In this document: positions 10,797 to 62,000 of the stretch, in pieces
Position numbering within the stretch: the stretch's first letter is position 1
Layout of the letters: each line of letters begins with the position of its first letter
Origin: Prochilodus magdalenae
Taxonomy: Eukaryota > Chordata > Actinopteri > Characiformes > Prochilodontidae
DNA length: 64,000 bases
Direction: 5' to 3'
Assembly (NCBI GenBank): GCA_024036415.1
Contig: JAMWET010001948.1
Location: 1 to 64,000 of the forward strand
Made by a program: the position numbers and the translations under genes
The notes under the pieces: generated by a model
What the model was told of the DNA's origin: nothing
The model's input: only the letters and a program-made list of their open reading frames with translations
Databases searched by the model: none

Positions 10797-10849
10797 GACA
10801 ATGAACGAGTCATCTGAAATTTTGAAGCCTGGTTATTTTAAGTCTCCCA

Positions 10850-13125: not shown

Positions 13126-13404
13126 CACTTTGGCTTCTTCTAGCACCGCAGGGTGCCTTCCTCGGTCCGGCTGATGGAAAGGATAATATTTAACAGTCCT
13201 CCTGTGGTACAGCGTGGTCTATCACAGTAAGCGCATGCCGGCTTTGGAACAGAAACATGGAACCTGTAGACCGACAGCTTTTGATGGCATACGTATCTTC
13301 AGGAAACTCTCAAACACTACAGAGTACAACTAACAAATCATCAGACAAGATGCAGCATGGTAGTCCTGGCCTCATTAGTCTCCTTTGAAAGGAAACACTC
13401 CTTT

Positions 13405-24952: not shown

Positions 24953-25011
24953 TCATTTCCTTGTGAGCAGTTGGTTCTCCAGCTTCTCCAACCGCAGAGT
25001 CATTGCTGACA
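24953..25011 (-). CDS. matn4: matn4 last coding exon (coiled-coil C terminus)
   Basis: 59 nt. With the C carried over from the previous exon it reads [19 protein letters not shown]-stop, the amphipathic heptads that close matrilin-4. It is preceded by a U12 acceptor (CTGCTAC before 25011) and branch sequence TCCCTTAAC at 25030-25022. Too short for frame-based gene finding. Confidence 0.9.
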
Positions 25012-25527: not shown

Positions 25528-25571
<44 letters not shown>

Positions 25572-26503: not shown

Positions 26504-26555
<52 letters not shown>

Positions 26556-26586
26556 GTATATATATGTATATGTGTATGTATATGTA

Positions 26587-26633
<47 letters not shown>

Positions 26634-28380: not shown

Positions 28381-28412
<32 letters not shown>

Positions 28413-28559
28413 ATAATTTATGGGGTATGTTTCATTAAGTTAACTAATTTTAATATTAATAATAAATAATTAATATTAAATAAATAAACATTACAAACGT
28501 GCGCATGCACTCGAGCCCACACACACTATTTTATATATGTGTATGTATGTATGTTTGTG

Positions 28560-28590
<31 letters not shown>

Positions 28591-28706
28591 GTGTGTATAT
28601 ATATGTATGTATGTATGTATGTGTATATATATATATATATATTAATAGATATACTTTAATAGCTATGCCGATGACACATGCGTACGTGTGTGTGTGTGTG
28701 TGTGTG

Positions 28707-28789
<83 letters not shown>

Positions 28790-28796
28790 GTGTGTG

Positions 28797-28828
<32 letters not shown>

Positions 28829-28964
28829 TGTATGTATGTATGTGTGTGTGTGTCATCGGCATAGCTATTAAAGTTAACCTCATGTATCCTAATGACATCA
28901 CCCAGAGATAACATGTACAAAGCAGAGGCCCCAAAACTGACCCCTGTGGTACTCTAATATAATT

Positions 28965-28995
<31 letters not shown>

Positions 28996-31900
28996 TCCAG
29001 TGAAACCAGGAACAGTCTCTTTGTTAAATATGAAGTCTAAACCTGTTCCTGAGAGGCTGGTTCCTGCGTTCATGATGGTGGATGGTGGACTACTGACCTA
29101 CACTTCCTGGTCTACTGTCTATGCACATACTGTGTATTTGTCTATGCACAGTACGGACTATTTACCTATTCTCCAATCACTGCCCTGGAGAAGGAGCCCT
29201 GTATTGGTATAATGACCATAGAGTTGAACTGAATTTGAAATGATGGTCACGTGCTCTGCTGGGACAGAGAGTATTGTGGTTGGTAAGATGCAGACTTGTA
29301 AAGGATATGTTTCTGGTTGAGCTGGTTAAGAGTGGTCATGGTAGCCTGCTGGAACTCCACAAGACTCTCACAGGCACAGGGGTCCTTTACCTCGATTTCG
29401 CCCTGACTTTCCTCTGAAAGCATATTAAAATAAGGGCAGCAGTCAGAGTTCATATTGGGAGGAGGGTTTACATGCAGTAGACAAATACCCTGAAGGCTGT
29501 GTGTCAGCTCCAGCTTAGACACTTCTGAGTGTCCTCTAGATGGGGCTAAAACACAGTTTATCTGATGTGACTGCATCTGCATGCTTAAACCTGCCCCACT
29601 GGATTCTTACACCAGACAATAAACCTAACGACATGACAACCATCAATAACCGCTACTGCAAAGCTTTTTAGAAGATTAATACTGTTGTATATTGTGTTTA
29701 TTGGTGTAATATGGCTTCTGGAACTCTTCACTCCTGGTTGTTGTAGGCTATCAATGTCTTAGCTGTCCAAAGAAAAACCAAGTACCTCCAAAATGGCAAC
29801 TTTACAGGAGAAGCCAAAAACCTCATTTAACTTTAATGGAAGTCAATGGAACCAGACTCTTTCCCCAGCAGTTTTGGGCCATTTCTGTTGGTCCATTCAT
29901 CATGAAATTCCCAGACTGTGTAAACGGCAGCTGCTGTGATCAAATGATGCATAAAAGTAAAAATGGAGAGACATGTTTTTCATTGGACAGCCAGGATGTA
30001 TCTCAGTAGGGTCTAGTGGGCTGCACGGTGTTTAGTGTTGAGTTCTGAAGCACATACCTGCACAGACATTGAGTTTGAGGTTCTCGGCGATCTGGCTGAT
30101 GGCAGTGAAGTCGGCAGTGTAGAAGAAGTGCTTCTCCAGAGGTTCTGAGGCGATCAGTCTCAGCTCATCCTCCACAGCTTTGCCCACACCAACAGCGTAC
30201 ATGGTGATGCCTGTAAAACAGGGCGCGAGTCATTTGTGTGCCAAGGATGACATGTTGATGCTTCAGTCGGTTACTTTGGTTCTTAGCTGATGGTCATAAT
30301 AATGTGACTCTACTATGCATGTGCCTCGTCTTACTTTGTTGTTGGTTTGTTCGGTGTCATTGCTCACCTGCATCCTTGGCTTTCTTGGCCCACTCTGTAA
30401 TGTCATCTTGAGAACGGCCATCGGTAAACACCAGCCCGATCCGGGGAATGTTCCTCGAGGCAGCGCGAGCACCTTCGGCCTCAGAGAAACTGTTCTCCAC
30501 CATGTGTTTTAGCGCCAGCCCAGTCATGGTTCCTTTCTCCATGTATTCCACCTTCATCACGGCGGCCTTGATGTCCTCCTTGCTTTTGTACATCCCGAGA
30601 GGGAACTCTGTTCTCACTCGGCTAGAGTACTGAACGAGACCCACTCGTGTTCCGTGACCAGAGACATCGAGCTGGTCCACGACCTGGTTGACGAATTGCT
30701 TAACGAGCTCGAAATTCTGCGGCCGGACGCTCTTGGAGCCATCGATAAGGAGGACCAGGTCGATGTTGGAGGATCTGCAACCTGTGGGTGACAAAGTACG
30801 TGTGCAATGAGACTCATGACCCAGAAGTGTCAGGCTCTTGGCAGAACGACTGAGTTCTGAACTCAGGAAAGTCTAGCTGTTGAGTTGAATCAAGACCGTA
30901 AAGTACTTTAGCCCACTATGACCTAACCGGTAAGCTGTGCTAGCTTGTTTCTCCAGGATGTCCTAAAAATACAAACAGCTTTGAAGACAGATGTCTTCCT
31001 CCTTCTATGTAATCTAAACAAGCTCAGGCTTGATCATGGAAACTCAGGGAAGATTATAAACGGAATGAAGAGATTTGGTGTGCATACTTCCACAGCTCTT
31101 TCCATCCTCCTGTAGAATATGGCCTTCAGGGCAGATGCAGTAGTATGACCCTGGAGTACTCACACACTGGTGCTCACATCCATGCTCCACTACGTTGCAC
31201 AGGTTGTCCGCTACACAAGACACAAACAGACGGAAAATGACTGAAAAGCAGTTTACAACGATTAAACAATAGAAATGTGATTAGAAATGTGATGCATTGA
31301 GAGAGATAATGTGAAGCTCAGTTGAAGCAACGACTTGGTAGATTCCCGTGCAATGCTCATAATGTCAAGTCAAGTAGTTTTATTGTCAGTACTTCAACAT
31401 GTTAACAAGACATACAGAGGGCTGGAATAGCTAGGGTTGGCACCTTTCAGAAACGAAAATAAAGGAGGGGTGTGGTCATGTGTGAGTGACGTTCGAAATT
31501 GCGTCCCGTATTTGATCTGATTCCGGAAGGGGTGGCATGTGTTTCTCTGACATTTAAGAAGTGAGTTTGGGGTGGGGGTTTGAGAGAGATTGTGATCATT
31601 CATGTGTGTGACCGACATGTATATCGGACATATACGGAACAAAACGCATCTCGTATTGGGTTTTTACAGGACGCAACATTTAATTGCCAAATAAAGGACC
31701 ATTCCGTATTTTATGGGACGGGTGGCAACCCTTTGAATAGCGCTACTCCCCGTCCCAAGGTGCAGCAAATACACATTTAATGATAAATATTTACAACTGG
31801 AATAAGAGTATGATGAACGTAATAAACACAAAACAGACATAAACATAAAACTTACAAAACCACTGCAACTCACAGGACTCACAGTGTGCACGCGTCGCCA

Positions 31901-37900: not shown

Positions 37901-40900
37901 CTGAAATATGTGGGAAAGAAACTTTCATATTATTCCTCGGATGTGAAAATGGCACTGAATCACTGCAGCGGATCTCTGAAGCCGACAAGGGTCCAAGTTT
38001 CCTGTTTTGATAATCCTGAAACACTAAATCAAAGTATTAAATTCAGTCGCTGGTCACCGTTTTCGCTCTTATTGCTCAGTAGCTGTGCATAACTGACCGA
38101 ATTCAGCGCCACATTTATTTATCATCTGCAAGCAGCAGAATCCCTGGAAAACCCATCACTGTCCGAGAGAGGTTGGTGAATCAATAAACGCTAAACAACA
38201 TTTGTTTTGGAGCTGCTCCACCATCCGGGAATCAGGACTGGGAAGATCGTTACGCTTACAGGCGTTCCCTCTTTTATTTGCATGTTGATCCGAAATATTA
38301 TTAAGCATCCTGGAAAAATGCGGTGACTTGCTGAGATGTGAATAAAGCCTAAGATTTTAGTCTTGACAAATTTGGTTAGATAATGCCAGTGGTGTTCAGT
38401 AAGTGTAATGTGTTAGTGTGCGCTAAGCAGTGTGTTGGTGTACGGTAACTCAGTAAGTGTAATGTGTTAGTGTGCTGTAAGTAGTGTGTTGGTGTACAGT
38501 AACTCAGTAAGTGTAATGTGTTAGTGTGCTGCAAGTAGCGTGTCGGTGTACAGTAACTCGGTAAGTGTAATGCGTTAGTGTACTGTAAGTAGCGTGTCGG
38601 TGTACAGTAACTCGGTAAGTGTAATGCGTTAGTGTACTGTCAGTAGCGTGTCGGTGTACAGTAACTCAGTAAGTGTAATGCGTTAGTGTACTGTAAGTAG
38701 TGTGTCGGTGTACAGTAACTCAGTAAGTGTAATGTGTTAGTGTGCTGTAAGTAGCGTGTTGATGTACAGTAACTCAGTAAGTGTACTGCGTTAGTGTGCT
38801 GTAAGTAGCGTGTTGGTGTACAGTAACTCAGTAAGTGTAATGTGTTAGTGTGCTGGAAGTAGAGTGTCGGTGTACAGTAACTCAGTAAGTGTAATGCGTT
38901 AGTGTACTGTAAGTAGTGTGTCGGTGTACGGTAACTCAGTCAGTGTAATGTGTTAGTGTGCTGTAAGTAGCGTGTTGGTGTACAGTAACTCAGTAAGTGT
39001 AATGTGTTAGTGTGCTGGAAGTAGAGTGTCGGTGTACAGTAACTCAGTAAGTGTAATGCGTTAGTGTACTGTAAGTAGTGTGTCGGTGTACAGTAACTCA
39101 GTAAGTGTAATGTGTTAGTGTACTGTAAGTAGCGTGTTGGTGTACAGTAACTCAGTAAGTGTAATGTGTTAGTGTGCTGTAAGTAGCGTGTTGGTGTACA
39201 GTAACTCAGTAAGTGTAATGTGTTAGTGTGCTGTAAGTAGTGTGTTGGTGTACAGTAACTCAGTAAGTGTAATGTGTTAGTGTGCTGTAAGTAGCGTGTT
39301 GGTGTACGGTAACTCAGTAAGTGTAATGTGTTAGTGTACTGTAAGTAGCGTGTCGGTGTACGGTAACTCAGTAAGTGTAATGTGTTAGTGTGCTGTAAGT
39401 AGTGTGTTGGTGTACGGTAACTCAGTAAGTGTAATGTGTTAGTGTACTGTAATTAGCGTGTTGGTGTACGGTAACTCAGTAAGTGTAATGTGTTAGTGTG
39501 CTGTAAGTAGTGTGTTGGTGTACAGTAACTCAGTAAGTGTAATGTGTTAGTGTGCTGTAAGTAGTGTGTTGGTGTACAGTAACTCAGTAAGTGTAATGTG
39601 TTAGTGTGCTGTAAGTAGCGTGTTGGTGTACGGTAACTCAGTAAGTGTAATGTGTTAGTGTACTGTAAGTAGCGTGTCGGTGTACGGTAACTCAGTAAGT
39701 GTAATGTGTTAGTGTGCTGTAAGTAGTGTGTTGGTGTACGGTAACTCAGTAAGTGTAATGTGTTAGTGTACTGTAATTAGCGTGTTGGTGTACAGTAACT
39801 TTAACAAATTGTAGGTTGCACTGTGTAAGAGCATCTGCCAAATATCAGAAATGTAAACTGAATTGTCCATACTCGTCAGAATCCACATCTATATTTAAAA
39901 TAAGCTGAAATTTGCTAAATAATTCCTCATCCCGAATGACACTTACAATACCCAGCATTAAATGGTCATGAAACCTCATTCTTGGGTTCTACACATACCC
40001 TGGCAGGTCTTCCCATCCTCCTGGAGAGTGTAGTCCTTATTGCAGCGGCAGAAGAATCCATTAAGCACGCTGACACATTCATGATCACAGCTGTGATTCC
40101 CAAACGAGCAATAGTCAATCACTGCAATCACAAAGAAGAGCAGGTTGTGCACAGTGGAATAAACCGAGTTCAGAGCTGGTGAATAAATTATTAGGCCTTT
40201 TTCAATAACACTGTAATATTTCATACACACAGAGACAACGCCTTGCTTACAGGACAGTGACTGGTAGACAGTTAAAGGGGCACTCCAGTCTAGAACACCA
40301 CTGCTAAGATGATGCATCTTGAAGGTATGAAGGAAACGCTAAGTGCTCTGGGGAGGATACCAGGGAGGGAAGGCTGTATTCGTTTCTCATGCCGGAGAAA
40401 GACAGTCACTGTTGTATATACTGTGTGGGTGAACCATGGAGACCTGTCTGGGGGAGATGGGTGGATTGTAGGAGATGTATATGACAGACATAGGGGATAT
40501 CTATCTAGCATACGAGCGAAAAAGCCTGAAGCATGCTGAAACAGCAGCCCAGGCAGAACAACGTAACAGGCATACCAAGGTTTTCTCAGTAGAAGTTGGG
40601 TGTAGAGGGTTTATGGCCATGACTACAACTAGACTCATGAACAGAATGGGAGTGAAAGGACAGGCCTTCCAACAAGCAGTGAAATTCACTCTCTGTGGAT
40701 AAGGAGGGACTCCAACTGGGCTGTGAGATGATCATCTAGGGGGTGATGAATATGGAGGGACAAAAACAGAGGGATGCCTGGTGTTGCCGTTGAGCCCTCT
40801 GAAGGTGTTGTGGGCCTAAATCAACGAAACATCAAGGAAGGAGGGTGCCCAGGCAAGAAGCAGTGCAGACTATTGAGGGGATCAAGTCCTATAAGCTTTA

Positions 40901-42371
40901 CTAATGGGGATGTAGTTGGGTAATATATGAGTGATCTATGGGGGTCTGCTGTATTCAGGTCTCCTGCACCTCTCAGAAAGAACTCTATTAGCAGAAGTTT
41001 GGCGACTTTATGAGCAGTGACGTTTATTGTCAGAACAAATAAAGAGGTCATAAACGGTCTATATACCTTCATACATAAAGTAAATACAGCTCTGGAAAAA
41101 CTTATAGAGCCCACCTGTAACTGATAAGCGTCTCTAGGTGTACAGGTTCTGGGTTTGTGTTGAACCAGAATCCCTCAGTTCTGTTTGATTCTCTGCACTA
41201 CTGGAACCATGTCTCCCAAACTCCAGATCAGATATTGTATTGGATCTGTTTATTTAGAAAATCACTAATGACCTCCAGAAGCCTGTTTTTAGAACCATGC
41301 TCGCTGTGCGTTTCACCCCAGCCACCGCTCGCCAGTCTCTCTGTAGGTCACTCGAGGTCATCTTACAGTAGTTGAGCGCCACCTCATTCCACTGTCCCTT
41401 ATCACGGTCAGTGGAGAGGGGGTTTGGCCCTCTGCCAGTCTGTAGCTGTGTTGTCCTGTGTGTTTGCTGCTGGACCTTGTTCTTATGAACCAGACGCTCA
41501 CTGTATCTGCCAGTAAAGCTAGAACCCAACCTTCGGTTCCTCACTGAGAACCTGCTGTACATGTGGAGATGCTGATTTAGGAAGGAACTGGAGTGCTCTC
41601 TTTATTTCCAGAGCTGTATGTGTAAGTACGTTAGTCTTCGATGGTTTTGCAGTGAACCAGAGTGCTACAGAATGTTACCCAACAGAACAATGTTGAATGC
41701 TAGTCCTAGACCAGAATGCCCCTTTAACGCGTAACTCATTAGTCAGCTCCTGAGTAACCAAACAGGATGTTCTGTCCTGCATAAAGTATTTCCAGAATTC
41801 TACATATAGCATCTTCCCTAAAGCAATAAGTGGTAAGGGTTTGTCTTAATGGCTTACGGTGTGCTAACAAAATCACCACTTTGATGGTCTGTGGTACAAC
41901 TGTACCTTTGGATAGCCCACTGTAGGTCCACCTCCTTGTATACCATTGTACAACACTGTATCAGCTCCACTAACCATATAGGCAGAGCACCATAGTCCAT
42001 CTGTTTCTCTGTATACTGTATTACCCTGTTTTTCAATGGTCAGGACCCCCACAGGACCACCACAGAGCAGGTATTATGTGGGTGGTGTATCATTCTCAGC
42101 ACTGCAGTGACACTGACAGGGTGGTGGTTCTGTGTAGATACAAGAAGGTGTACCTAATGAAGTGGCTACTGGGTTTGTGTCTTGCATTTAGATTACATCC
42201 AATTAGAAGTCAATTTAGGTATATATCTAATGGTATATAGATGTAATAGATAATCTGTTTATACATAATTGAACAAAAAAAAAAGAAAAATTATATATAT
42301 ATAAATAATCGAACAAATTATATATATATATATATATAAAGATTATTTATAAATACATTTAAAAAATAATA

Positions 42372-42403
<32 letters not shown>

Positions 42404-45400
42404 TATTTTTTATATTTTTTTTATTATATCATCGCTCTCAATTTTTGTTTACTTTAGCACAGTGTGGAAATTGGAGAATGGACCAACAGAAATGGCCCAA
42501 AACTGCTTAAGACGTCTGGTTCCATTGACATCTATTCAAATTAAATGAGGGTTGTGGCCCATCCTGTAAAGTTACCATTTTGGAGATACCTGTTTTTCTT
42601 TGGACAGTGACGATATATATATTTTGCTGCTAAGACTTTCTATGTATAATGCCCACTATTCTAAATTGTGAATCTGTTGAACAGACCTATAGGAAACCAG
42701 TAAGCATGCCAGCTAAGGAACTTTTGAAAACCTAATTCCCATAGAACTTCCATAGCCAATAAGAAGCCCTCTGTAAACGACATTACGTTTAGATAAAGTA
42801 GCATCACATGAAACACACTCGTCGCATGTGATGGCAGGGATGTTCACGGTGAACTTTGCATGCGGAGTATGTGTCCCAGTGGAACAGTGCAAGCGTGCAG
42901 TGTAAAACCAGCATGCGGAACTACGGGACGGTGTGTTTGGCTCGGTCCGAGGCCCTCACTAACTTGTGCAGGTCTTCTTGTCGTCGTTGAGCGTATATCC
43001 ACCATTACAGCGACAGTAAAAGCCATTGAGGACGCTCACACACTTGTGCTCACAGCTATCATTTCCAAATGAGCAGTAGTCGATCACTGCAACAGGTTGA
43101 CAACAGTAGTAAGCAGTGGAAGCGATACAGATCATTAATAGGTGTATAGTATTAAGCAGGTATTACTGAACGCTGAAAGCAAACTCAGGTGAACACTGTG
43201 GGCAGATACTTGTGGTTATATGCTAGGCAAGGGAAGCTGAAAGATGGAAACTTTGCACATACAGGGTGAGTCAGAAGTGTCAGGACACCCTTTTATTTCA
43301 GAAATAATTTAATTTAATTTTCAGCAAATAATGGGTAAGGAGGCCTATCTTTCAATCTTTGTCTTCAGCGCTGTGTTTAGCACCAGGGACAACACTGAAC
43401 ACATCAGATAGCTGTGAATCACAGGAACTTTCCTGGTTGCTGTTGCAGCTTTCTGTGTTAATAACTTTTGAACCACAAAAGATATTACAAATTTGATTGT
43501 GGCAATTCATTTCTGAGAACATTCTGGTCTTCTTTGATATGCTACATCACCTTCCCATTGGAAAAGTTTTTTCAAGATGGCTGCCATGTTCTGGGCGTAG
43601 CCTTAAAGACGAGCCCCCTCAGTCTTTACCTGCTGAGCTATTCAAATATGTCATTTTCCCTTTTGTTTCTGAAATAAAAGGGTGTCCTGAGACTTTTGAC
43701 TCACTCAGTATATATATATTTAAGTGCAGATTGCAAATCGTTGCTCACGAAACTGGGCCCGAGTTTGATTCCCAGGCAGGACGCCCAGGGTTTCTTTCTG
43801 TGTGGAGTTAGCATGCTCCCCGGGTGTCTGTGTAGGTTTCCTCAGGGTGCTCTGGTTTTCTTCCCACAGTGCAGAGACATGTGGTCAGGTGAACTGGAGA
43901 TGCTATGTAGTTTGTGTGAGTGTATGTCTGTAAATAAGCCCTGTAGTGGCCTGTCCAGCGGGTTCCCTGCCTTCTGCCCTTTGAGAACTGGGATAGGCTC
44001 CAGCACCCTGCAGGACCCAGTTGGGTTATGAGTGTTAGAAGATGAGTGAGTTTGTTTGGGTCCTGTTCCCACATACTAGTTGGATCTTTAAGCCTTTGTT
44101 AGCAGTCTTCCTACTCTTGTTTTAGGAATCTTCTTCCACTCTTCCCTGCAGAACGTTTTTAGGTTCTGTGATATTCTCGGTCCGTCCTGCATGCACTGCA
44201 AGTTTATGCCAGTCTCTTTTCTCAGCTTCAGTTTCTTGACTGGCCATCTCACGTTTTCCTTGGAGAACTTGCTGATATGTAGTGGAATTCAGTCTTTCAT
44301 CTGCCTATACAGTGTCCTGTGACAGTGGCTGCCACACAACCCCAAAGCATAACAGATCCGTCACAGTTAAGAGTTGGGAAGTTGGCAACTTGTTATTTTC
44401 ATCAAGTGCTGTTTTCTCAAGGCAGGTTTCCAAATGCATCTAGAAGTTGTTTGGCCTTAGATGCACAGATGTTAAATTAGGTTTTGAGGTTTCGTTCAGA
44501 TGACTCTTCCATGGAGATCACTGTTGCACAGTGCACCACCACTCCTGTGTCAGCTAAGGGCCTTTGCTGCCATATGGGGGTTTTGCTTTGCATTTCTTCC
44601 AGGCCTTCCAGATCTCGCCTTGACTTCCACAGTTCCTCCGTATCTGCCATTTCTTAACAGTCGCGATCTGGATATCCTTCCGCAGTCTCCTCCTGCCTTA
44701 CCAGCATCAGTTATCTCAATTTTCATATCCTCAGGCAGCTCTTTAAAGGAGCCCATGGTTGTTAAGTCCTACCACATGCTAAACAGGCTAATAAAGTTCT
44801 GGTTGGTAAGGTGTTTTTTTTTTTTTTTAATTGAATCGTGTACAAAGTTAACACTTTCAGTTTGGCGTGTGCGTATGTATGTATGTATGTATGTATGTAT
44901 GTATGGGCTGATATTTGGCCCTCACTAACTTGTGCAGGTCTTCTTGTCTTCATTAAGAGTGTAGCCCTCATTACAGCGGCAGTTAAAACCTTTAAGGATG
45001 CTCACACACTCGTGCTCACAGCTATGGTTTCCAAATGAGCAGTAGTCGATCACTGGAATGGGCAGAGAACAAAAAGATGGAGCAAGAGAAGAACGAGAGA
45101 AGGAGAAGAAGCAAAGCAGTTAATGAGCTGCAAGCATGGAACATTATTTGTTCAGGGCAATGAGATGACACGCTAAAGGAGCTAAAGTAAAAGGACATGT
45201 TATATTGTTAGGGTGGCTTTATATGGTGAAACTTTGAGGCAGTGTCATTGGCTTAAAATTTCACAAACCAAATTTGAACTTGTGGTGCATCATCTACCGC
45301 CACCTGAATTGAAGCTTGTTGAAAAGACAGAATGCTGGTTTTTGTGTCATGGATGATTTCAAACTACAATCTTCCCTTGATACAATGTCTTGGCCGGAAT

Positions 45401-48400
45401 GTCTTGATGGAGAATGTCCTCAGTTTTTCATTTTATCACTCACGTGAGCCATGAGTACTTGGCAATAATCAGCTTCATGAATCTATATTGATTTATGCTG
45501 CCCATTTGTTGGAAACATGTTTGCTAAAATTGCTAGCAAGCCAGCCAATGTGAACAGGACAGCTGTTTGTACTGTAGATAAATTTAGGAGCCAATTTAAG
45601 CAAGATTACTATGCACGGCCACGAGGGACCATTAGTCCACAAATTCCTCGTCTCCTAGTAAATCAATTTTTATCTATTTTTAATAAGGAATGAAGTACAC
45701 TCCTCATCAAAAGAACAGTTGGACAAATCCCAGAAGGAGTCAGGAATGAACAGACAGGCATGAAACTTGGTGGGTGGGTTTCACATTATGAGACATGTGA
45801 ATGATTTATGCTTCACGCTCAACTGCACAGCTGATGTTAGCTAGGACGGGCCTTATCTCTGTACCTGACTGACCCAACAGCCACAATTACGGACATCCAG
45901 TGAGCAGTGGTGTCCTCCATGAGTCATCCTGTTAGTGCAGCACCATTGGCAGACGGCTGCACCACACAGGACTACATGCACACAGACCTTTACACCGACT
46001 GTCCTTAACACCACGTCACCGTCACCAAAGACTGCAGTGGTGTCGTACCAGACTGTCATGGAGTGACTCAGAATGGCAGCGGGTCATCTTCAGTGACGAG
46101 TCCCGCTTTTGTCTTGGTGGAGACACCCAGCGAATCCGTGTGTGGAGGCACCATAGTGAGCACCAAGATGAACGGTTTGTTATCACACGTCCAGACGGCC
46201 TGGTGTCACTCCACCTCCACCCCTACCGCACCATCTGCAGGAACTGTGTGTGGATGTTCAAGCTGCATGGGATGGATTATCACAGGACTCCATTAGGAAC
46301 CTCCACAGCTCCATACCGAGACGTCTGGCGTGTTGAATTAGCAAACACGGCGGCCCAGCACCATACTGAGAGACAGACTTCTGTATGTGTAGCTCAATAA
46401 ATATTGATCATATCAGTCTAAATGTATCATCAGTTATTGATCCTGGTCACCTTTATCTTCCTTCCCAACAGCACCGCACTCCCACACCTCCTTCTGGGTG
46501 CAGCTGTTCTTTTGATGAGGAGTTATTGGTTTGGTTTATACAACACGTCTGAATGGTACTAGACATGTACACCATATTGGGGCCTGTATGTCTAAACAGA
46601 CAGGGTTCTGTTTAAACCAGGTGTCACCAGTCTTATCCATTGAGGGTCAGTGTGGCAGTATGTTTTGACTCAGTTGGTCTCACTCTTGAGATAGCCGATT
46701 GCTTGTATGGGGTGTTACTCTGCTTGGTTAGAACATAAGCCGGTAGCCACATCTGCACACAACCTCTGACCTCTTTGTGGATAAGACTGGTGCATTAATA
46801 ACTGCATGAATTTGAATGTCTCCAGGTATGTATGTGTGGTGTGATCTAAGGATTGTACTAACTTGTGCAGGTCCTCTTATCGTCGTTGAGTGTGTATCCT
46901 TCATTACAGCGGCAGTTAAAGCCTTTGAGGATGCTCACACATTCGTGCTCACAGCTATCATTTCCGAACGAACAGTAGTCGATCACTGGAGATGGATTAC
47001 ATGAGTTAGGATGGATTCAAGGACGGCTTCATTGATGTTGCATAAAAACAATGATTTGTACAGATATCACCATACGTTTGGCTGTTTTCAGACCAAGTTT
47101 CCTTTCATAGTCTACTGGACGTCGGGTCAAGTCAGGAGGCTTTTATTGCCATTCCCTTCATGTATAAGTACACAGTGGAGTGCACTGTAGAGTCAATTTG
47201 GATCATTGCTTTTATGGACCACAGGTAAATGATGTAATGTGCAGGTGTGACAAACTAAAAGAAGAACCAGAATAAATAAATGTAGTAACAAGTGCAGATG
47301 CTACCAAACTAGTGTACAGCATGGAATGATACGAGCTCACCAGGCAAAAAAAAATGTAAGTTTAAGGTGGTAGTAACTTCAGCCTCCAGCAGATGGGGCT
47401 TTAAATCCCTGTGGGGTGTGAGGGATGGGATCCATAGATTGGGAAGAGGTGCTACAGTGCAGGGAATGTCTCGTTCCATGTGTGGAAAACACTCCAGAGC
47501 ATATGTTAATGATTGGCTAAAAGGAGGGACTGCATGTGGGCGTGGCCAAAGACCATAGTGTGAAGGAAGTAGCTGAATCTGCAGGCGTATGGAAGGGTAC
47601 GGTCATATGGGTCTACCAGCAGTGACTAAATTCCCAGTCTACAGGGAATTTTCCTCGGAATTGTGCCAGGGAGGGCATCCACCAAATCTGGACCAACTGC
47701 TCAATTCTTTGATGTAGGAGTGCCTGAACATTGTCCAGTACATGCCCAATCCAGTTCCAGCTGTTACTGGTGCTTGTGGAGGTGTTACACGCTATGAGGT
47801 ACGTTTCAGTCACTCAGGACTTGTTTTTTGTCCGGTGAGCTCATAGAAGGACGCTAAACAGGCTCAACTGATTTCATTTTCAGATTAAGATGGCAAGATG
47901 GGAGAAATTCTAAGTGACTTTGGAAAAGGATTCATAGTTAGAGCATGGGTGGCAGGAGCTTCAGTCGATAGCAACAGTGACTAAAGAGATCTAAAAGGAA
48001 GACAGAGTTGAAAATTGCTGTGGAAAGTGCACATTTGGTGAGCGTGTTGCTTGTGCATTAGTGCGTTAAGAGCATCTGTTCCTGTGGTGATCATTCTACA
48101 TCCGGACAAACAGAACATCCAGGACTATAATGCTGAGGAATGCAGTGCGTAAGCTCGTCATTACAAAGATAAATGAACATCTGCACCAGCAAGATGTTCA
48201 CACCAATGTGGGAAAAGTGATCTGGATAGATGAGTCATCCAATGTATGTGGGCAAGAGGCACATCCGGCGAACACCAAGAGTGGTACAAGAGTAGTACAG
48301 ACCGGAATGCTTGACCCCAACAGGGGTTAGGGTATGGGGGCTTGGGGCAGTGGCTTTCCAGATGACCTTTTTTATTTTTCATACTAAGATGAAATCCCGA

Positions 48401-51400
48401 GCTTTCCCTTATTCCCTGCTTTCCTCGTGTGGGTGTCAATAGCATATGGAGGTTATTGATGTTTCTTCCGCCAACTCATCTTAAATCCTTGATCTTCTTT
48501 CTCCAGTCTGGTTACTACTGCACATCTTCAGCATATAGAGCAAACAAGTGTGGTGAGAGTGGGCAGCCTTGTCGAACACCTCGCCAATGTGGAACCAGCC
48601 TGTCTGTCATTTTCTGTCATGACTGTGGCTTGTTGATCAGTATACAGGTTCCTTATTAGAACAATGCAATGTTCTGGTATTCCATTTTCCTGAAGACCTT
48701 AATTGCACATGGTTGACCCATTCAAAGTCTTTACTGTTTATGAATTGTGTGTTGATGTCCGTCTTGAATTCCTTTGCTTTCTTCGTTTCACAGTGCACAT
48801 CAGTGAACGCTCAAATCTCTCCGTCATGCTTGGATGTTCTTCAACACAAGGCAACATACAGAATGTGAATTGGGTATCTTCTTGTCCACAGTGGCAAATG
48901 TACACAACTAATAAAGAGTAGTCATTACATTTACTAGGAAACATGACAGATTTTCCAGAACAACCTTTAGCTTCAGGTTCAAGAGAGCTAACCAGACATT
49001 TTGGCCACTTTCCTTGGGCTTAAAACGAGAATTCAGAGTGTAACTTATCATCAGCTACACGTTCTTGAAAATGAGAGGCCTGCATTGAAGCTCTTCTGGT
49101 GACTTTTGGCAGCCCAGCACTTTCCTAAGACTTTCTACGTTGGCTTTTCTTTTAATTTGTCACCTGTCTGTATAAACACTCATCGACAAAATACAGTTGC
49201 ACTCAGAAAGAATCAACTGACAGGAACGTCTTCAGTGTGAGTCATCTTCAGTGATGAGTCCTGCTTTTGTCTTGGTGGACATGACCAACGAATCTGTGTG
49301 TGAAGGCACCATGGACAGCACCAAGATGAGCGGTCCAGAAGGCCTGGTGTCACTCTACCTCCACCCCTACCACACAATCTGCAGGAACTGTGTGAGGATA
49401 CTGAAGCTGCATGGGATGGATTATCACAGGACACCATTAGGAACCTCTACAACTCCATGCCGAGACATCTGGCATGTTGGGTTAGCAAACATGGTGGCCC
49501 GATGGCATACACAACCCCACACCTCCTTCTGGATGCAGCTGTTCTTTTGACGATGAGTGTACTAGCATTGTGTTGCATGTGGTATTCCAGAATAGATCCT
49601 CTGAGGTACACGACAAGAAGACGATGCACATTTCGGAGGCTATTCCTTCAGGTTTGATGGTGTGTTGCATGAGGTTTGGCTCCCACTGACTTGTGCAGGT
49701 CTTCTTGTCTTCATTGAGGGTGTATCCCTCATTGCAGCGACAGTAAAAGCCTTTGAGGACGCTCAAGCACTCGTGTTCGCAGCTATCATTGCCGAATGAG
49801 CAGTAGTCGATCACTGGAACAGGTAGAGGACAATAAGGGACTCTATGCATTAGCACGATATAGAAGAGCATGCAAAGACAAATGTGCAGTAAGAGAAGAA
49901 GCGCTGATGGCCTGATAAGCCCCCACTAACTTGTGCAGGTCTTCTTGTCTTCGTTGAGGGTATATCCTTCATTGCATTGACAGTAAAAGCCTTTGAGGAT
50001 GCTCACGCACTCGTGTTCGCAACTATCATTGCCGAATGAGCAGTAGTCAATCACTGGAACAGGTAGAGGACAATAAGGGATGCTATGCATTAGCAAAATC
50101 AGGAAGAGCATGCAAAGACAAATGTGCAGTAAGAAGCCCTGGTGGCCTGATAAGCCCCCACTAACTTGTGCAGGTCTTCTTGTCTTCGTTGAGGGTGTAT
50201 CCCTCATTGCATTGACAGTGAAAGCCTTTGAGGACGCTCACGCACTCGTGTTCGCAGCTATCGTTGCCGAATGAGCAGTAGTCGATCACTGGAACAGGTA
50301 GAGGACAATAAGGGACTCTATGCATTAGCACGATAAGGAAGAGCATGCAAAAGACAAACGTGCAGTAAGAGAAGAAGCCCTGGTGGCCTGATAAGCCCCC
50401 ACTAACTTGTGCAGGTCTTCTTGTCTTCGTTGAGGGTGTATCCCTCATTGCATTGACAGTGAAAGCCTTTGAGGACGCTCACACACTCGTGTTCGCAGCT
50501 ATCGTTGCCGAATGAGCAGTAGTCGATCACTGGAACAAGTAGAGGACAATAAGGGACTCTATGCATTAGCACGATAAGCAAGAGCATGCAAAGGCAAATG
50601 TGCAGTAAGAGAAGAAGCATTGGTGGCTTCATTGCCCCCCAGCCACTAACTTGTGCAGGTCCTTTCATCTTCATTAAGAGTGTATCCCTCATTGCAGCGA
50701 CAGTAAAAGCCATTGAGCACGCTCACGCACTCATGCTCGCAGCTATCATTTCCAAACGAGCAGTAGTCGATCACTGGAACGCGTAAAGATCAGTGAACAG
50801 TGAGCGGTCCTGCTTGTGAACTTTTGGAAGAGTAAGATTAGCAAGCAAAAGGAGGAAAGATATTGATAACCAGGCTTTCCACTTACTTGTGCAGGTCTTC
50901 TGGTCCTCGTTGAGCTTGTATCCGTCCTTACAGCGACAGTTAAAGCCATTCAGGATGCTCACACACTCGTGCTCACAGCTGTCGTTTTTAAACGAGCAGT
51001 AGTCGATCACTGGAGCAGGAAGAGAACACAGACACGTTAGAAAGCTCAGGAGTAGCAACTCGGACTTACCCTACCTCAGAATGAACGATGGATAGATTTG
51101 GTAAAGAAAAACCTTCGTTATTTACAGCGGTTAATGGTGACCAAATGCAAAGCAGATGGTTTAGTTTTGCGAGTAGTGAAAACTCCAAAAACATTCAGCA
51201 GTGAAAATTAATAATGTGATCGAGTCTGTGAAAAGACCTTTGGTAACACTTTACATTGTTACAAGTGTTGACTAACTAACATGAAGTAATGCATCAGTTA
51301 GCATTAAGTAATGAATTGGTTAGCATGAAGTAATGCATCATGAAGTAATGCATCAGTTAGCATTAAGTAATGAATTGGTTAGCATGAAGTAATGCATCAG

Positions 51401-54400
51401 TTAGAATGACGTAATGCATCATGAGGTAATGAACCAGTCAGCATGAAGTAATGCATCATGAGGTAATGAATCAGTTAGCATGAACTAATGCATCAGTACG
51501 CATGAAGTAATGCATCATGAAGTAATGCATCAGTAAGCATGAAGTAATGCATCAGTTAGCATGAAGTAATGCATCATGAAGTAATGCATCACTTAGCATG
51601 AAGTAATGCATCATGCGGTAATGAATCAGTTAGCATGAAGTAATGCATCAGTTAGCATGAAGTAATGCATCATGAAGTAATGCATCAGTTATCATGATGT
51701 AATGCATCAGTTAGCATGACGTAATGCATCAGTTAGCATGACGTAATGCATCAGTTAGCATGACGTAATGCATCATGAAGTGATGCATCAGTTAGCATTA
51801 AGTAATGCAGGATGAACTAATGCATCAATTTCTATGAAGTAATGCACCAGTTAGCATGAAGTAATGAATCATGAAGTAATGCATCATGAGGTAATGCATC
51901 AGTTAGCATGACGTAATGCATCAGTTAGCATGAAGTAATGCATCATGAGGTAATGCATCAGTTAGCATGAAGTAATGCATCAATTAGCATTAAGTAAGGC
52001 ATCAGTTAACAGGAAGTAATGCATCATGAGGTAATGCATCAGTTAGCATGAAGTAATGAATCGGTTAGCGTGAAGTAATGCATCATGAAGTAATGCAACA
52101 GTTAACATGTAATAATGCATAAGTTAACAGGAAGTAATGCATTAACAATGATTAATCAAAGATAACTAATCATGTAACAGCTACATGCATACATGTTATG
52201 TGCAAATCTAAGAGCTGTTACTTCCTGTTAACTAATGCATCACTTCCTGTTAGTTAGTCACACCTAATGTAAAGTCTTATCGGACTTTTTAAGAGGGACA
52301 AATGCAAAGCAAAACAGCATGCAAAAACTAAACGAGTCTAAAAGCATAATATAACGCAGGATCCTCAGGAAGCTTCTAGAGCCCGACCGATATGGCTTCC
52401 CCATATAATATCTAATACTAACCACCCACCCAGTGTCACAGCTGGTAGATGGTCTTGGGTGGGTTTAGGTATATAATTAGAGTCTAATTTTCATGGACCA
52501 AAGTAACGGATGTCAGGAAAGAACACATACGGTTTATCAATACAACCCTTCACACCCCTCACACTTGCAGCTAAACAGCTTTCAAATACGCTTAGCTATG
52601 CGTTTTTGTTTTTTTTTATTATGTTTTGTCTGAAAAAATAGAACTCTATGTGAACAGGCCTTAAACAAGTGAATTTAAGCAAAATAAACTATCATGTGTG
52701 GAACTTTTGCGCAGTGCCCCCTAGTGGCTGTTTCTAAGGGGGAATGGAAGTTTTCTCATATTGTCTCAATGCTCATGTCCTGTTATGACCCATGTCTCAT
52801 ATTTCTGATTAAAACCATTATGTACGTTAACTTTTCCCTTGAACTGTAAACAGATGCAATAGCACCCTATCCCTGCTTCTCTGTCCGTGAAATGATGTCT
52901 CTGTGTTGAGCTGCTAGCAAGCAATGAAGGGTGAAAGGGGAGGAGTAAGAAAATTCTTGTTGACTATCCCTGTTGCCTGTTATGCACATTTCCTATTATG
53001 CATACAATGCATATGGCCTACGGCTATTTCCGGTTTTGCCTATAACCTGTGTCTCTCATTAAATGAATTTTAAAAGTATGTTGTCTTTTCCCCTGAACTG
53101 TTAACAGATGCACCAGGACAACATACATGGGTTACTGTGCCTCTGTGTTGAGCTGCTAGTGAGCAATGAAGGGCAAAAGGGGAGGAGCTTGAAATGAGTC
53201 ACACTGCCCCACAAAGCCGAACAAATCAAGAGAGTGCGCTGATAAACATGGGTGTGTTAGGATTGATAACTGCCATGAATTCTCATATCGGTCGGGCTCT
53301 AGAACCTACAGCCATCTACATTTCCTATTACTGAAATGAGAATCATCGGTTGTGGACGGTGTGTGTGTGTGTGTGTGTGTGTGTGTCACCCTCACTAACT
53401 TGTACAAGTGGTCTCATCCTCATTGAGGTTGTATCCTTCATTGCAGAGGCAATAAAAGCTTTGGAGCACGCTCACACACTGGTGTTCACAGCTATCGTTC
53501 CCAAATGAACAGTAGTCGATCACTGGAACAGGTAAACAGCGTGAGGACGGGGTTCAGTAGCAGCTCCGTATGCTGTGCATGCACACACTGAGCTGCCATT
53601 CCAACTCTGTAGTTATGGCTATAGTACACCATTCAAGCGTTCCTGTAACTCTTCTTTACTTTGCTTCATAACTGAATCCTGATTGGTTAACGTTAATGAA
53701 GTATTTATAAAACAACGATTATAAAAGCATCATAATGATATTTCTTAAAGGAAGTATTTGTTATTTTATGGAAGTACATACATGGAGGAAGCCGAATGAA
53801 CAGAAACACCATTGGGCATAGACCTGTGCACTTAATAGAGGAAGAGACGGGCCATGAGGGTAGGAAGAAACATGGCCGAAAGGTCCAAACACCAAAAACA
53901 CTACAGGAATATTTGTATAATTAAAGCTGATATTAAAGAATGGATTTCCTTTTAGTTTCCTATTACTATGGTATGCGCAATGCCTGTGCCCATTGCCTGT
54001 TATGCATATTGCCTATGCCCATTTCCTGTTTTGCATATTGCCTATGCCCATGTCCTGTTATGCCTATTGCCTATTTTGCATATTGCCTATGCCCATTTCC
54101 TGTTATACATATAACCTATGCCCATTTCCTGTTTTGCATATTGCCTATGCCCATTTCCTGTTATGCATATAGCCTATGCCCATTTCCTGTTATGCATATT
54201 GCCTATGCCCATTTCCTGTTATGCATAATGCCTATGCCCATTTCCTGTTATGCATATTGCCTATGCCCATTTCCTGTTATGCCTATTGCCTATGCCCATT
54301 TCTTGTTATGCCTATTGCCTAGTATGCATATTACCTATGCCCATTTCCTGTTTTGCATATTGCCTATGCCCATTTCTTGTTTTGCATATTGCCTATGCCC

Positions 54401-55980
54401 ATTTCCTGTTTTGCATATTGCTTATGCCCATTTCCTGTTATGCATATTGCCTATGCCCATTTCCTGTTATGCCCATTGCCTATTTTGCATACTGCCTTTG
54501 CCTATTTCCTGTTATGCACACAGCCAATGCCTATTACTTATGCCACAAATGCCCAAATGCCCTAGCGCCCCACTACTGACTCCCGTGCACATTCATTTTA
54601 CGTAAGGCTTAGCATGCACGCTAGTAGTGCTGTGACCATATTGGGAGAGACTTTCCTGTGTGCATAGCTGTGGCTGACGTTACTTTAACATGAACATGGT
54701 AAACTCAAGCCCATCTGCTAAACCTGACTAGCCATGTTCACCTGTCATCCTATAAGATGTATTCTTGTTCTGAGAACCAAACCCCCCACCCCAGTGCTGA
54801 GTGGTCCACTGCAGGTTTTTGGTGGTTTGAAGTGTAGTGCTGGTTACTGAGTAGCTCATTCTGAGATACCATATAGACTGACATTGAGAAACCAGAGCAG
54901 CATGACCTGTAGGTGTTTCTGTCATTCGCCACGCCCCCTGTACATCATAGCAGGTTTAGACAACCTACTGTCTCTGTGCTGTAAAGGTTAATAGGAGAAA
55001 AGGCTTGACTGGCTTAGTCGCCTCCACTAACTTGTGCAGGTCCGTTCGTCGTCATTGAGAGTGTATCCCTCCTTACAGCGACAGTTAAAGCCGTTAAGGA
55101 CGCTGACGCACTCGTGCTCACAGCTATCGTTTCCAAACGAGCAGTAGTCGATCACTGAAACAGGTAGACAGGGGTTAAAGAGTAGGGACCTACGGAAGGG
55201 CGGAGGGTCATTAGAAGTGATCTGATATACCACGCTAGAGGCAAGGGTGACCCATGGCATCTCTCTGTGAACAGAAGCTGAAGTTCCATCTTTACAAATA
55301 TCTATAAATAAACTTTCAGCATATCATTTATGTTGGGAGAAACAAGAAAGGCTGAAGCTAACATCTAGGACCAGCTACGATGCCCTGCCTCTTCACCTGG
55401 AAGCATCCTAATGGCCAAATTACTGGAAACGAGCTTTTCACGTTAACCTCACCAGGTCCTTCACAAGCTCAGGGGACAACAAGTGAGTCACCGGTAACTG
55501 AAACATACCCAATAGCATGCGTTTGGAATTGACATGGACTGGACAGGTTTCAACATCAGTGTTCAGACACAGTAGACTGACTTACAGATGTAAAAAAAAA
55601 AAAAAAATCTCCAAAATAAGTTTAATAATCTCATATTATTATTTCAACAGTTTCAAAAATGAGCATTATCAGATATAGATAATATTATTACGGTGCCCAG
55701 GATTTATTTAGTTGGGTATGGACCCTTTTCATACCAACAGCATTGGAACAATAACAGCCCAGACCAGTCGTATCTGCTGGAACGTATTTGCTGGGCTCTT
55801 GTATTTACTACACACAGTCATGTTCACTAGACTAAGCAGTTCAGCTCAGAGCGAGACCTAACCAAAGGATCTGCTCAGCTAAAGCCGGCCCATTTCTCTT
55901 ACCTACAATATATTTACCTAAACAGGATGTTCCATAGACGCTCCTGTCCACTCTCACAGCCCGGGGGGCATTTCAGCAAT

Positions 55981-59000: not shown

Positions 59001-62000
59001 AGAAGCTCCTCACTGAGAAAAGGGGACAGAAGACACATCCAACAGAGAATCTGCTGGTGTTCTCAGGACAATGGACTGACCACCCCAGAGTCCAGAACCT
59101 CAACACCACCGAATGTGTTTAGGGTTACATAGATGGTGAGATGAAGCAAGCTTTGGGGGCGTGTCTCTCTGAAACTGAGTCCCCTGGAAAGAATGGAAGC
59201 TTTAATGAAGGTAAAGAGTGGACACACTTAACGCTCTGACCCTCTGTCAGAGCCTATGTTAAGTATGTCTCCTGCTTTTGGCCGTTTTGACTGGAAATTT
59301 AAAAACATGAATGGCGGTCTCTGACTTTTGCACAGTACAGTGTGGTCTGAGAAACTGAAACAGTGAGGATATGTGTAGTGGCGGTCCGACACCCTGACCC
59401 AGCCTCTGTATCGGTGAGGCACTAACTTGTACAGGTCTTCTTGTCTTCGTTGAGTGTGTAGCCAGTGTTGCAGTCGCAGGTGAAAGAGCCAGGAGAGCTG
59501 ATACAGATCTGCTCGCAGTCATGCTTCCCATCCGCACACAGATCAATGGCTGCAAGACATACAGAGCCACGCTGGGTTACATCGGGTTAAACTTTAAACA
59601 GGGAAACTTCAGAGTCATTCAGAGTGGTCTGAGGCGACATGCCCTGTGCTAGAGAAGCTGTCAACCAGAAGGAATCAACCAACAGGAATGAAACTTGGTT
59701 GGCACGTTTGATGTCCCGCTTTAGTCTTGGTGGAGACGCCCAACGAATCCGTGTGTGGAGGCACCGTGGTCAGCACCAAGATGAGCGGTTTGTAGTCACA
59801 CGTCCAGAAGGTCTGGGGTCACTCTACCACCACCTCTACCGCACCATCTGCAGGAACTGTGTGAGGATATTCAAGCTGCATGGGATGGATTATCACAGGA
59901 CTCCATTAGGAACCTCTACAGCTCCATACCGAGACGTCTGGCGTGTTGGGTTAGCCAACACGCCAGCCAGACGCCATACTGAGAGACAGACTTCAGTTAC
60001 TGTATTAATATTATAATTATCATGGAGAGAACACGAGGGCCCCACGGATGCCCTAGCTAGCAATCAAACCTGGACCTTTCTTGCTGTGAAGCAACAACCC
60101 CACCTTAAGCCCCACCGTGCCAACCAGGCAGAATACTATCTAAGGAGGCCTTATTGTTTCAGACCTGATGCTGTTATGCCAACATTAACATTCCACACAT
60201 AAGCCCAGAAGGCACTGGCAGGTTCACTGGTGGTGCAGGACAGTAGATAAAATTATATGTGTGGTAAACATCTGGTTCCTATCACTACTGGTGACCCAGT
60301 GCACTGCACAGTATGACCTAGTCAGCAGAGGAGCTGAAACGGATGTGTGGAATCAGAAAACTGTGCGGCACTCCGGGTCGCCAGTCACTAAACTTCTCCA
60401 CGATCCATTTCACATCGAACCACTCTGAATGACTGTTCACATCTTAACACAGAACGTTTAAAGGTCAGTGGAGTTCCATGTTTACATAACCAAAACAGGA
60501 TCAGAGAAGTCGCCCACCTGTGCAGGTCTTGCCGTCCTCATTGAGGGTGTACCCCGGCAGGCAGAGGCACTGGTAGGAGCCGGGAGAGCTCTCGCAGATG
60601 TGGTCGCAGCCGTGATCAGACTCAATGCAGAGGTCGATTTCTGTAAAACCAAGCCACATGAGTCTTTCCTGTGCAGTCAAATCAGGGGCAACACTGAATT
60701 ACCTCTGGAGGATTAACTGGGAATTCCAAGCACAAACGACGGCAGATTCAGGTGTCAAGCCATAGCTTCATTTCAGGGCTCTGTTTGTAGATGCTTGGGG
60801 TTTAATCAGATGATTTTGTGTAGTTCATTGTGATTAATTCTCAAATTTGATCCTACAGGAAGATTGTTCCCAATAAAAAACAACTAAATAGATTTATTTA
60901 TGAATTAAGTGGTTCATTTTATTAATTATATAACATTATTTTCATTTCTTGGATCCAGAACCTGAACATGAAAAAGATTTAACTGAATTACATCCTCTTA
61001 AATCAGCATCTCCACATGTACAGCAGGTTCTTAGTGAGGAACCGAAGGTTGGGTTCTAGCTTTACTGGCAGATACAGTGAGCGTCTGGTTCATAAGAACA
61101 AGATCCAGCAGCAAACACACAGGACAACACAGCTACAGACTGGCAGAGGGCCAAACCCCCTCTCTACTGACCGTGATGAGCGCCACCTCATTCCAATATC
61201 CCTTACCCACCGTAAGATGATCTCAGGTGACCTACAGAGAGACTGGCGAGCGGTGGCTGGGGTGAAACGCACAGCGAGCATGGTTCTAAAAACAGGCTTT
61301 TGGAGGTCATTAGTGATTTTCTAAATAAACAGATCTAATACAATATCTGATCTGGAGTTTGGGAGACATGGTTCCAGTAGTGTAGAGAATCAAACAGTAC
61401 CAACACAAACCCAGAACCTGTACACCTAGAGACACTGATCAGTTTTAGATGGGCTCCTAAATTTTTCCAGAGCTGTAGGCCATATGTAAAGTCAGTGGTT
61501 CACTTGCTCTATGATTGTAGCCTCTTGCACTCATACAGCTGGTGGGTTCTTGTGAACTGGAAGGGAATGGGAACTGGAGGTCCAGGAAGCTGCTGCTGCT
61601 TATGGTAGCTTCTATAGTTCCCCTGCTCTAAGAGCTGTATTTAAACGAGAGAGCTACAACCACAGAGTCCATCAGAGCAGTATACTGGCGCTGCAGCTGG
61701 GCAATCAAGGACTCAAGTTGACTTACTGCAAAGCTTGTCCTGGAACTGAAGGCCGAACTGGTGAATGAGATCGAAGCTCTCCACTAAGAACACGTGGTCT
61801 TCAAAGGGCGGGGACGCCATGGCTCTCAGGGAGGTCATGTCGGCTCTGGCCACACCCACAGCGTAGATCTCAATGCCGGACTCTCTGGCGGCGGCTGCCA
61901 CCTCAGCAACACGATCCTGTGGCCGTCCGTCGGTCACGATGACCGCTACGTGGGGGACGTTGGTCCGGGCTCCCTCGGCAGCGGAGAAGGCCACGTTCAT

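What the first reader, a model, noticed from the sequence alone, without database searches (positions are those of the whole stretch)
39999..55154. Third EGF module of matrilin-4 expanded to twelve copies
EGF 3 to EGF 14 are twelve exons of one type (Ile-Asp-Tyr-Cys-Ser-Phe), while EGF 1, 2 and 15 each match one of the other three mammalian MATN4 modules. The predicted protein has 1071 residues and 15 EGFs, against about 620 residues and four EGFs for human MATN4 as I recall it. Every exon is exactly 123 nt and phase 1-1, all cysteines are kept and all splice sites look good. So the expansion appears functional: a much longer, perhaps variable-length arm between the two vWA domains. I know of no described matrilin with this architecture.
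Basis: partly seen in the sequence, partly recalled or inferred. Interest (0 to 1): 0.85.

Follow-up and report, generated by a model that had tools for sequence, protein, structure and literature searches.

The report
Matrilin-4 arm with fifteen EGF modules
A fish related to piranhas and tetras carries a matrilin-4 gene whose third EGF module has multiplied to twelve copies; the related fishes examined do the same to a lesser degree, while examined fishes of another great branch lengthened the same protein with a different module.

Summary
On the minus strand, 39999-55154 carries twelve 123-nt, phase-1 EGF exons of one type inside a complete 21-exon matrilin-4 coding sequence (1071 residues, two VWA, 15 EGF, coiled coil). 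A module tree puts all twelve with mammalian EGF3 (98/94). They evolve under constraint: pooled pN/pS 0.16.

Corrections: (1) the architecture is not unique; listed ostariophysan matrilin-4 models have up to 12 EGFs in one isoform. (2) EGF14 is the orthologue of ancestral EGF3; the others were added upstream. (3) Only EGF7-10 are recent, within a 240-bp exon-plus-intron tandem.

New here: among the proteins listed, 117 of 117 from the ostariophysan list multiplied EGF3-type modules and 111 of 111 from the euteleost list EGF2-type modules (the lists favour long proteins). The EGF3 type carries an N-glycosylation sequon, the EGF2 type seldom does, so the choice of module changes predicted glycan load: 12 sequons here, all in EGF3-14. 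Annotated isoforms of relatives lack varying type-3 modules, so arm length is probably variable. No transcript of the source fish was seen.

The parts
63650..63722 (-). exon 1 (coding part): signal peptide
   Evidence: ATG, hydrophobic leader, GT donor in phase 1; inferred from sequence, 5' UTR exon not sought
61727..62293 (-). VWA1 exon, 567 nt
   Evidence: PF00092
60518..60640 (-). EGF1
59427..59549 (-). EGF2
55032..55154 (-). EGF3 (derived type-3 copy; unique reciprocal best match in Pygocentrus)
53400..53522 (-). EGF4 (derived type-3 copy; groups with one Danio, one Pygocentrus and two Chanos modules, 99/93)
50887..51009 (-). EGF5 (derived type-3 copy)
50651..50773 (-). EGF6 (derived type-3 copy; protein identical in Pygocentrus)
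50407..50529 (-). EGF7 (recent copy)
50166..50288 (-). EGF8 (recent copy; same protein as EGF7)
49931..50053 (-). EGF9 (recent copy)
49691..49813 (-). EGF10 (recent copy)
49682..50780 (-). 240-bp tandem of exon plus 112-121-bp intron (EGF10 to EGF6)
   Evidence: TRF, 4.6 copies; introns EGF6>7, 7>8, 8>9, 9>10 are 80-95% identical pairwise
46863..46985 (-). EGF11 (derived type-3 copy)
44930..45052 (-). EGF12 (derived type-3 copy)
42964..43086 (-). EGF13 (derived type-3 copy; its match occurs in two Pygocentrus isoforms)
39999..40121 (-). EGF14, orthologue of the ancestral EGF3
   Evidence: outside the 30-copy derived clade, 100/99; C-terminal signature
31088..31210 (-). EGF15, orthologue of mammalian EGF4
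   Evidence: 98/92
30368..30781 (-). VWA2, first exon
30058..30210 (-). VWA2, second exon
29309..29413 (-). coiled-coil exon 1
   Evidence: PF10393
25012..29308 (-). U12-type AT-AC intron (ATATCCTTT donor, TCCCTTAAC branch-like stretch, AC end); class assigned by eye from recalled consensus
   Evidence: minor introns in all four matrilin genes: PMC6865273 (passages)
24953..25011 (-). coiled-coil exon 2 with stop codon

Best explanation
A functional matrilin-4 gene of a characiform-like fish in which the EGF3 exon multiplied. Shown here: an intact gene model, one module type for all twelve copies, constraint on the copies, EGF14 as the old EGF3, EGF7-10 as recent copies in an exon-plus-intron tandem. 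Most likely mechanism (inferred): an early duplication of the symmetrical phase-1 EGF3 exon gave a copy upstream, before Gonorynchiformes and Otophysi parted; further duplications followed, and in the central block unequal crossing-over between 240-bp repeats can still change copy number. Any whole-exon gain, loss or skip keeps the frame, so genome and splicing can both set arm length. The product is inferred to be a coiled-coil trimer whose VWA1 domains sit on long arms; each type-3 module carries one N-glycosylation sequon, so the long arm should also be densely glycosylated (inferred), while the VWA domains stay conserved as binding ends.
For: Gene model without a stop or broken splice site; Pfam domains; best hit named matrilin-4 of Pygocentrus, the other listed hits being named matrilin-4, VWFA domain-containing, hypothetical or unnamed proteins; type-3 clade 98/94 with mammalian EGF3, derived copies 100/99; pooled pN/pS 0.164; exons of EGF7-10 92-99% identical and the introns 80-95%; EGF1, 2, 14, 15 are unique reciprocal best matches in 10 of 10 ostariophysan species compared; VWA1 and VWA2 parts 94-96% identical to four other characiforms (grouping partly recalled) although arm length differs; sequon in 12 of 12 window copies and 181 of 186 distinct list-A type-3 modules, N in 179 of 180 and S in 176 of 180 against D in 143 of 180 between them; Pygocentrus isoforms keep modules 1-5 and the last two in 7 of 7; four coiled-coil matches over the cut-off in the own genome, one of them this gene.
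Against: No transcript of the source species was seen. Isoforms of relatives are database gene models, and most listed ones are shorter than the longest. EGF7 and EGF8 give the same protein and EGF7-10 are too alike for a strong test of constraint on each. The structure model of the Pygocentrus protein is too weak (mean pLDDT 63.2, pTM 0.32) to show the shape of the arm. Occupancy of the sequons is not shown. PMC2427018 (passages) states that EGF number does not affect matrilin assembly. The module tree rests on 40 columns: 17 of 73 inner branches are starred and 29 drawn open.
Confidence: 0.8

Rival explanations
1. The arm is lengthened by drift: symmetrical exons duplicate easily, extra EGFs do no harm, and selection only keeps each module folded because a misfolded one would ruin the protein.
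For: All EGF exons are phase 1-1, so gain is frame-neutral; EGF number varies among related fishes, 7 in the listed Salminus protein to 12 in Pygocentrus; EGF number is said not to affect matrilin assembly (PMC2427018, passages).
Against: Listed fishes of both cohorts of Clupeocephala have long arms, from different modules, while the 114 proteins new in the third search, 108 named as mammals and 6 unnamed, have 3 or 4 EGFs. Neither fact excludes drift, and the fish lists favour long forms.
Confidence: 0.4
2. Most extra exons are usually skipped and the main product has about 7-10 EGFs.
For: Listed isoforms of Pygocentrus, Astyanax, Electrophorus and Triplophysa are mostly shorter than the longest and lack varying type-3 modules.
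Against: Pairwise dN/dS is at most 0.37 in every defined pair of the twelve copies, so they are translated often enough to be constrained, with a weak test for EGF7-10; long isoforms are annotated in relatives.
Confidence: 0.35
3. Assembly artefact or dead exons.
For: The locus is full of tandem repeats and the assembly has 7790 contigs.
Against: Copies differ in exon and intron (introns of 113, 121, 118, 112 and 117 bp); relatives have the same kind of array; no broken copy.
Confidence: 0.03
4. The gene is a matrilin-2 orthologue, the matrilin known for many EGFs in mammals (ten, as I recall).
For: Many EGFs between two VWA domains.
Against: Best hit is named matrilin-4; type-3 and type-4 modules group with mammalian matrilin-4 EGF3 and EGF4. 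No matrilin-2 sequence was compared. The table in PMC1464127 has a dash for D. rerio matrilin-2 (passage).
Confidence: 0.02

Closest known systems
Matrilin-4 of Pygocentrus nattereri (P0001) and the corresponding Serrasalmus rhombeus protein (P0003); database models
   Same: Same order 1-2-3^n-4, VWA parts 94-96% identical, unique reciprocal best matches for EGF1-4, 6, 11, 13-15 in both
   Different: 12 EGFs in the longest listed protein (at least 13 exons in Pygocentrus by union of isoforms) against 15 here; central copies multiplied separately or homogenised
Matrilin-4 of Danio rerio (P0033)
   Same: Same multiplication of EGF3-type modules; shares the EGF4-type copy
   Different: 8 EGFs in the isoform examined
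Matrilin-4 of listed Euteleosteomorpha (Scomber P0114, Dissostichus P0120, Esox P0129, Gadus P0198)
   Same: Same gene, same arm between the two VWA domains lengthened
   Different: EGF2-type modules are multiplied (up to 9 in one protein) and the extra ones lie after EGF3, whereas here the extra ones lie between EGF2 and the old EGF3; type 3 is single or absent; few sequons
Mammalian matrilin-4 (e.g. P0229, Pongo, 622 aa)
   Same: Domain order and homology of EGF3 and EGF4
   Different: 3 or 4 EGFs in the 114 proteins new in that search (108 named as mammals, 6 unnamed)
Matrilin-2 of mammals (recalled, not compared)
   Same: Long EGF arm between two VWA domains
   Different: Another paralogue; origin of its EGF copies not examined

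Membership tests
Matrilins | VWA domains flanking EGF modules | tested here: met
   two VWA, 15 EGF between
Matrilins | C-terminal coiled coil (PF10393) | tested here: met
   2.3e-14, over the cut-off
Matrilins | U12-type AT-AC intron splitting the coiled-coil exons | tested here: met
   15 for the intron, classed by eye; PMC6865273 passages for minor introns in all four matrilin genes; its exact place in other matrilins is recalled
Matrilin-4 (MATN4 orthologue) | Nearest named relatives are matrilin-4 and module order is as in MATN4 | tested here: met
   type 3 and type 4 modules group with mammalian EGF3 and EGF4; EGF1/2 unresolved; no matrilin-2 in the comparison
Matrilin-4 (MATN4 orthologue) | Four EGF modules as in mammals (not a defining trait in the fishes examined) | tested here: not met
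   15 here; 228 of 228 fish-list proteins have more than one type-3 or type-2 module
Matrilin-4 (MATN4 orthologue) | Forms a trimer, binds matrix partners | not testable with these tools
   trimer of the matrilin-4 coiled-coil peptide stated in PMC2427018 (passage); not shown for this protein
Matrilin-4 (MATN4 orthologue) | Transcribed with all EGF exons | not tested
   no RNA of the source species held

The most novel reading that the evidence does not exclude
The two cohorts of clupeocephalan fishes, Otomorpha and Euteleosteomorpha, independently lengthened the matrilin-4 arm from different modules, one glycosylated and one hardly so, under selection for longer reach in the matrix; and in this characiform-like fish the 240-bp coding exon-plus-intron tandem makes arm length polymorphic between individuals.
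Probability: 0.3. Interest if true: 0.68.

Novelty: new variant of a known kind. Interest (0 to 1): 0.5.

Why it matters
It gives a natural series, from 4 to 15 EGFs, in which the VWA ends of a matrix adaptor stay conserved while the spacer changes. That makes it possible to ask what spacer length and glycan load do in cartilage, in laboratory fish with either kind of arm (Danio rerio; medaka, if it follows its clade). It also shows that counting EGFs is not enough: two groups that look alike by length differ in which module was used.

Tried and rejected
Considered and rejected: assembly artefact, dead exons, matrilin-2 orthology (see rivals). The structure prediction of the 12-EGF Pygocentrus protein (collected) gave EGF-like strands in 12 of 12 modules but too little confidence for the shape of the arm; no fold search was made on it. 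A PDB sequence search showed the 60 best of 177 matches, among them collagen VI, integrins, thrombomodulin and NELL2, none named matrilin. The outgroups are mammals only; I saw no shark, gar, amphibian, bird, Clupeiformes, Osteoglossomorpha or Elopomorpha name among the 120 rows listed per search.

Papers: ten searches. None of the titles and abstract starts listed concerned matrilin-4 EGF expansion in fishes; the lists (20 of 50; 12 of 27) were cut. Ko et al. 2005 on zebrafish matrilins, seen only as a reference in PMC1464127, is not held, so a description there cannot be excluded.
Full report
The gene. Read on the minus strand, the window holds a coding sequence of 21 exons from 63722 down to 24953: signal peptide, VWA1, fifteen EGF exons, VWA2 in two exons and the coiled coil in two exons, 1071 residues. 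All 20 junctions are in phase 1. Nineteen introns have GT and AG ends; the last starts ATATCCTTT, has TCCCTTAAC near its end and finishes with AC, which I class as U12-type from the recalled consensus; [quoted passage not shown] Pfam reports two VWA, fifteen EGF-like stretches and the matrilin coiled coil. The own genome (1.18 Gb, 7790 contigs; the window lies in a contig of 74,845 bases) has four coiled-coil matches, counts there being lower bounds; one is this gene. Of the other three loci, L001 encodes a VWA domain 52% identical to VWA2 here, L002 matches the coiled coil at 44%, and L003 gave no match at E 0.01; that they are matrilin-1, -3a and -3b is my inference.

The twelve modules. EGF3 to EGF14 occupy exactly the coordinates given. 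A tree of 86 modules from ten species, chosen by me from the proteins held, has only 40 columns, and 29 of 73 inner branches are drawn open; the types nevertheless separate. Forty modules, including mammalian EGF3 of three species and all twelve window copies, form one side of a branch with support 98/94, and EGF15 groups with mammalian EGF4 at 98/92. Inside the type-3 clade, 30 ostariophysan copies, among them window EGF3-13, form a clade at 100/99 that excludes window EGF14 and its counterparts in Pygocentrus, Danio and Chanos, and the single EGF3 of Scomber, Gadus and Esox. So EGF14 is the old module and the others were added upstream of it. A second sign agrees: the last type-3 module ends in L-[QL]-x-[DN]-G-x-x-C in 111 of 116 list-A proteins whose arm ends in types 3-4, while 1 of 486 other type-3 modules does (isoforms of one species are counted apart). 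Window EGF4 groups with one Danio, one Pygocentrus and two Chanos modules (99/93), so it should predate the split of Gonorynchiformes from Otophysi. The set EGF3-13 of the window is not a clade of its own, so the expansion is not peculiar to this species.

Age and selection. Over 66 pairs (not independent) pooled pN/pS is 0.164. dS is 1 or more or beyond estimation in 30 of 66 pairs and 0.5 or more or beyond estimation in 56 of 66; among EGF7-10 it is 0.04-0.31. One other pair, EGF5 and EGF13, is also low at 0.30, for which I have no explanation. The introns EGF6>7 to EGF9>10 are 112-121 bp and 80-95% identical pairwise, while the EGF5>6 intron is 55-59% identical to them. TRF reports 49682-50780 as a 240-bp tandem of 4.6 copies. 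In ten ostariophysan species (19 proteins) a unique reciprocal best match exists for EGF1, 2, 14 and 15 in 10 of 10, EGF3 in 6, EGF4, 11 and 13 in 5, EGF6 in 4, EGF9 and 10 in 1, EGF5 and 12 in 0, and EGF7 and 8 in 0, which cannot score because their proteins are identical. I read this as an old frame with a middle that turns over.

Relatives. Three protein searches each listed the best 120 of 1349, 1806 and 2711 matches. Ranking by a long query favours proteins rich in the query's own modules, so short fish forms would not show; this is no survey of all fishes. I split the 228 proteins of the first two searches by the species names listed: list A (117; P0001-P0119 without P0036 and P0114) and list B (111; P0036, P0114, P0120-P0228; P0137 has no name). 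The taxonomy of four species was looked up (Chanos and Pygocentrus in Ostariophysi, Otomorpha; Esox and Scomber in Euteleosteomorpha); the rest is recalled. With references picked from the same proteins, 117 of 117 in list A have more than one type-3 module and at most one type-2, 111 of 111 in list B have more than one type-2 module and at most one type-3, and none has both multiplied. Many rows are isoforms of one species. In list B 28 of 111 read 1-2-3-2-2-4, and 63 of 111 have no type-3 module, some of them because the isoform lacks it. In list A the extra copies lie between EGF2 and the old EGF3; in list B they lie after EGF3. Of the 114 proteins new in the third search (108 named as mammals, 6 unnamed), 15 have four EGFs and 99 three. 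The simplest reading is an ancestor with 1-2-3-4 and two separate expansions, but the only outgroup seen is mammals.

Isoforms. Listed Pygocentrus proteins have 948, 911, 907, 825, 784 and 743 residues, mostly steps of 41 or its multiples; 7 of 7 keep modules 1-5 and the last two of the longest one and lack parts of the middle. In Astyanax 11 of 11 keep modules 1-2 and the last two, but some lack modules from the third on; in Electrophorus 4 of 4 keep 1-4 and the last three (matching by identical sequence, ambiguous where copies are identical). Two Pygocentrus isoforms hold a module absent from the longest, the match of window EGF13, so the gene has at least 13 EGF exons. Seven Electrophorus proteins together show 15 distinct module sequences, two of which look like versions of one. 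Fifteen EGF exons are therefore not far from what relatives have. These are database models, not measured transcripts.

Glycosylation. The window protein has twelve N-x-S/T sequons, one in each of EGF3-14 and none elsewhere. Among distinct modules, the sequon before the second cysteine occurs in 181 of 186 type-3 modules of list A and 31 of 31 of list B; types 1, 2 and 4 of list A have no sequon (0 of 23, 0 of 30, 0 of 22), and in list B type 1 has 0 of 42, type 2 has 15 of 204 with one elsewhere in the module, and type 4 has 0 of 38. In the third-search proteins it occurs in 40 of 42 modules picked as type 3 by a string that favours them; of 143 other modules there, 37 have some sequon. In 180 list-A type-3 modules chosen by their first residues the N is kept in 179 and the S in 176, the residue between in 143. 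Multiplying EGF3 thus multiplies predicted glycan sites; multiplying EGF2 adds few. Whether the sites are used is unknown.

Function. Zebrafish matn4 is named among Sox9 targets and cartilage genes in PMC7891931 (passages) and marks otic-capsule structural cells in PMC9851615 (passages). PMC2427018 states that EGF number does not affect matrilin assembly (passages). I therefore expect the extra modules to act on reach and surface of the arms and not on oligomer formation; this is inference. The structure prediction of the Pygocentrus protein (mean pLDDT 63.2, pTM 0.32) does not test it.

Verdict. The more interesting fact is that one matrix protein was lengthened with two different modules in the listed fishes of two large cohorts. 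I found no description of it in the listings of the ten paper searches made, in a library that lacks most subscription journals.

Noticed in passing
window 9861-10832 and 12208-13218, minus strand: Two open olfactory-receptor-type 7TM genes close together (PF00001 and PF13853 matches).
   Followed up: partly
window 35768-37369, 38396-39800, 51280-52142, 53911-54625, 56797-57510: Large minisatellites in the matrilin-4 introns (units of about 222-231, 54, 22/37/59, 29 and 29/103/236 bp).
   Followed up: no
window 46083-46523, 49241-49558, 59633-60016, 15411-15806, 20005-20469: Fragments that look to me like broken Tc1-type transposases, three of them inside matrilin-4 introns; the family name is recalled, not searched.
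   Followed up: no
proteins P0125, P0140-P0153 and others: In 63 of 111 list-B matrilin-4 proteins, many from Cyprinodontiformes (recalled grouping), no type-3 EGF was recognised; whether the exon is lost or only skipped was not tested.
   Followed up: partly
window EGF5 (50887-51009) and EGF13 (42964-43086): These two non-adjacent copies have a lower dS (0.30) than the other older pairs, perhaps chance or gene conversion.
   Followed up: no
window 25012-29308: U12-type AT-AC intron 4.3 kb long between the coiled-coil exons.
   Followed up: yes
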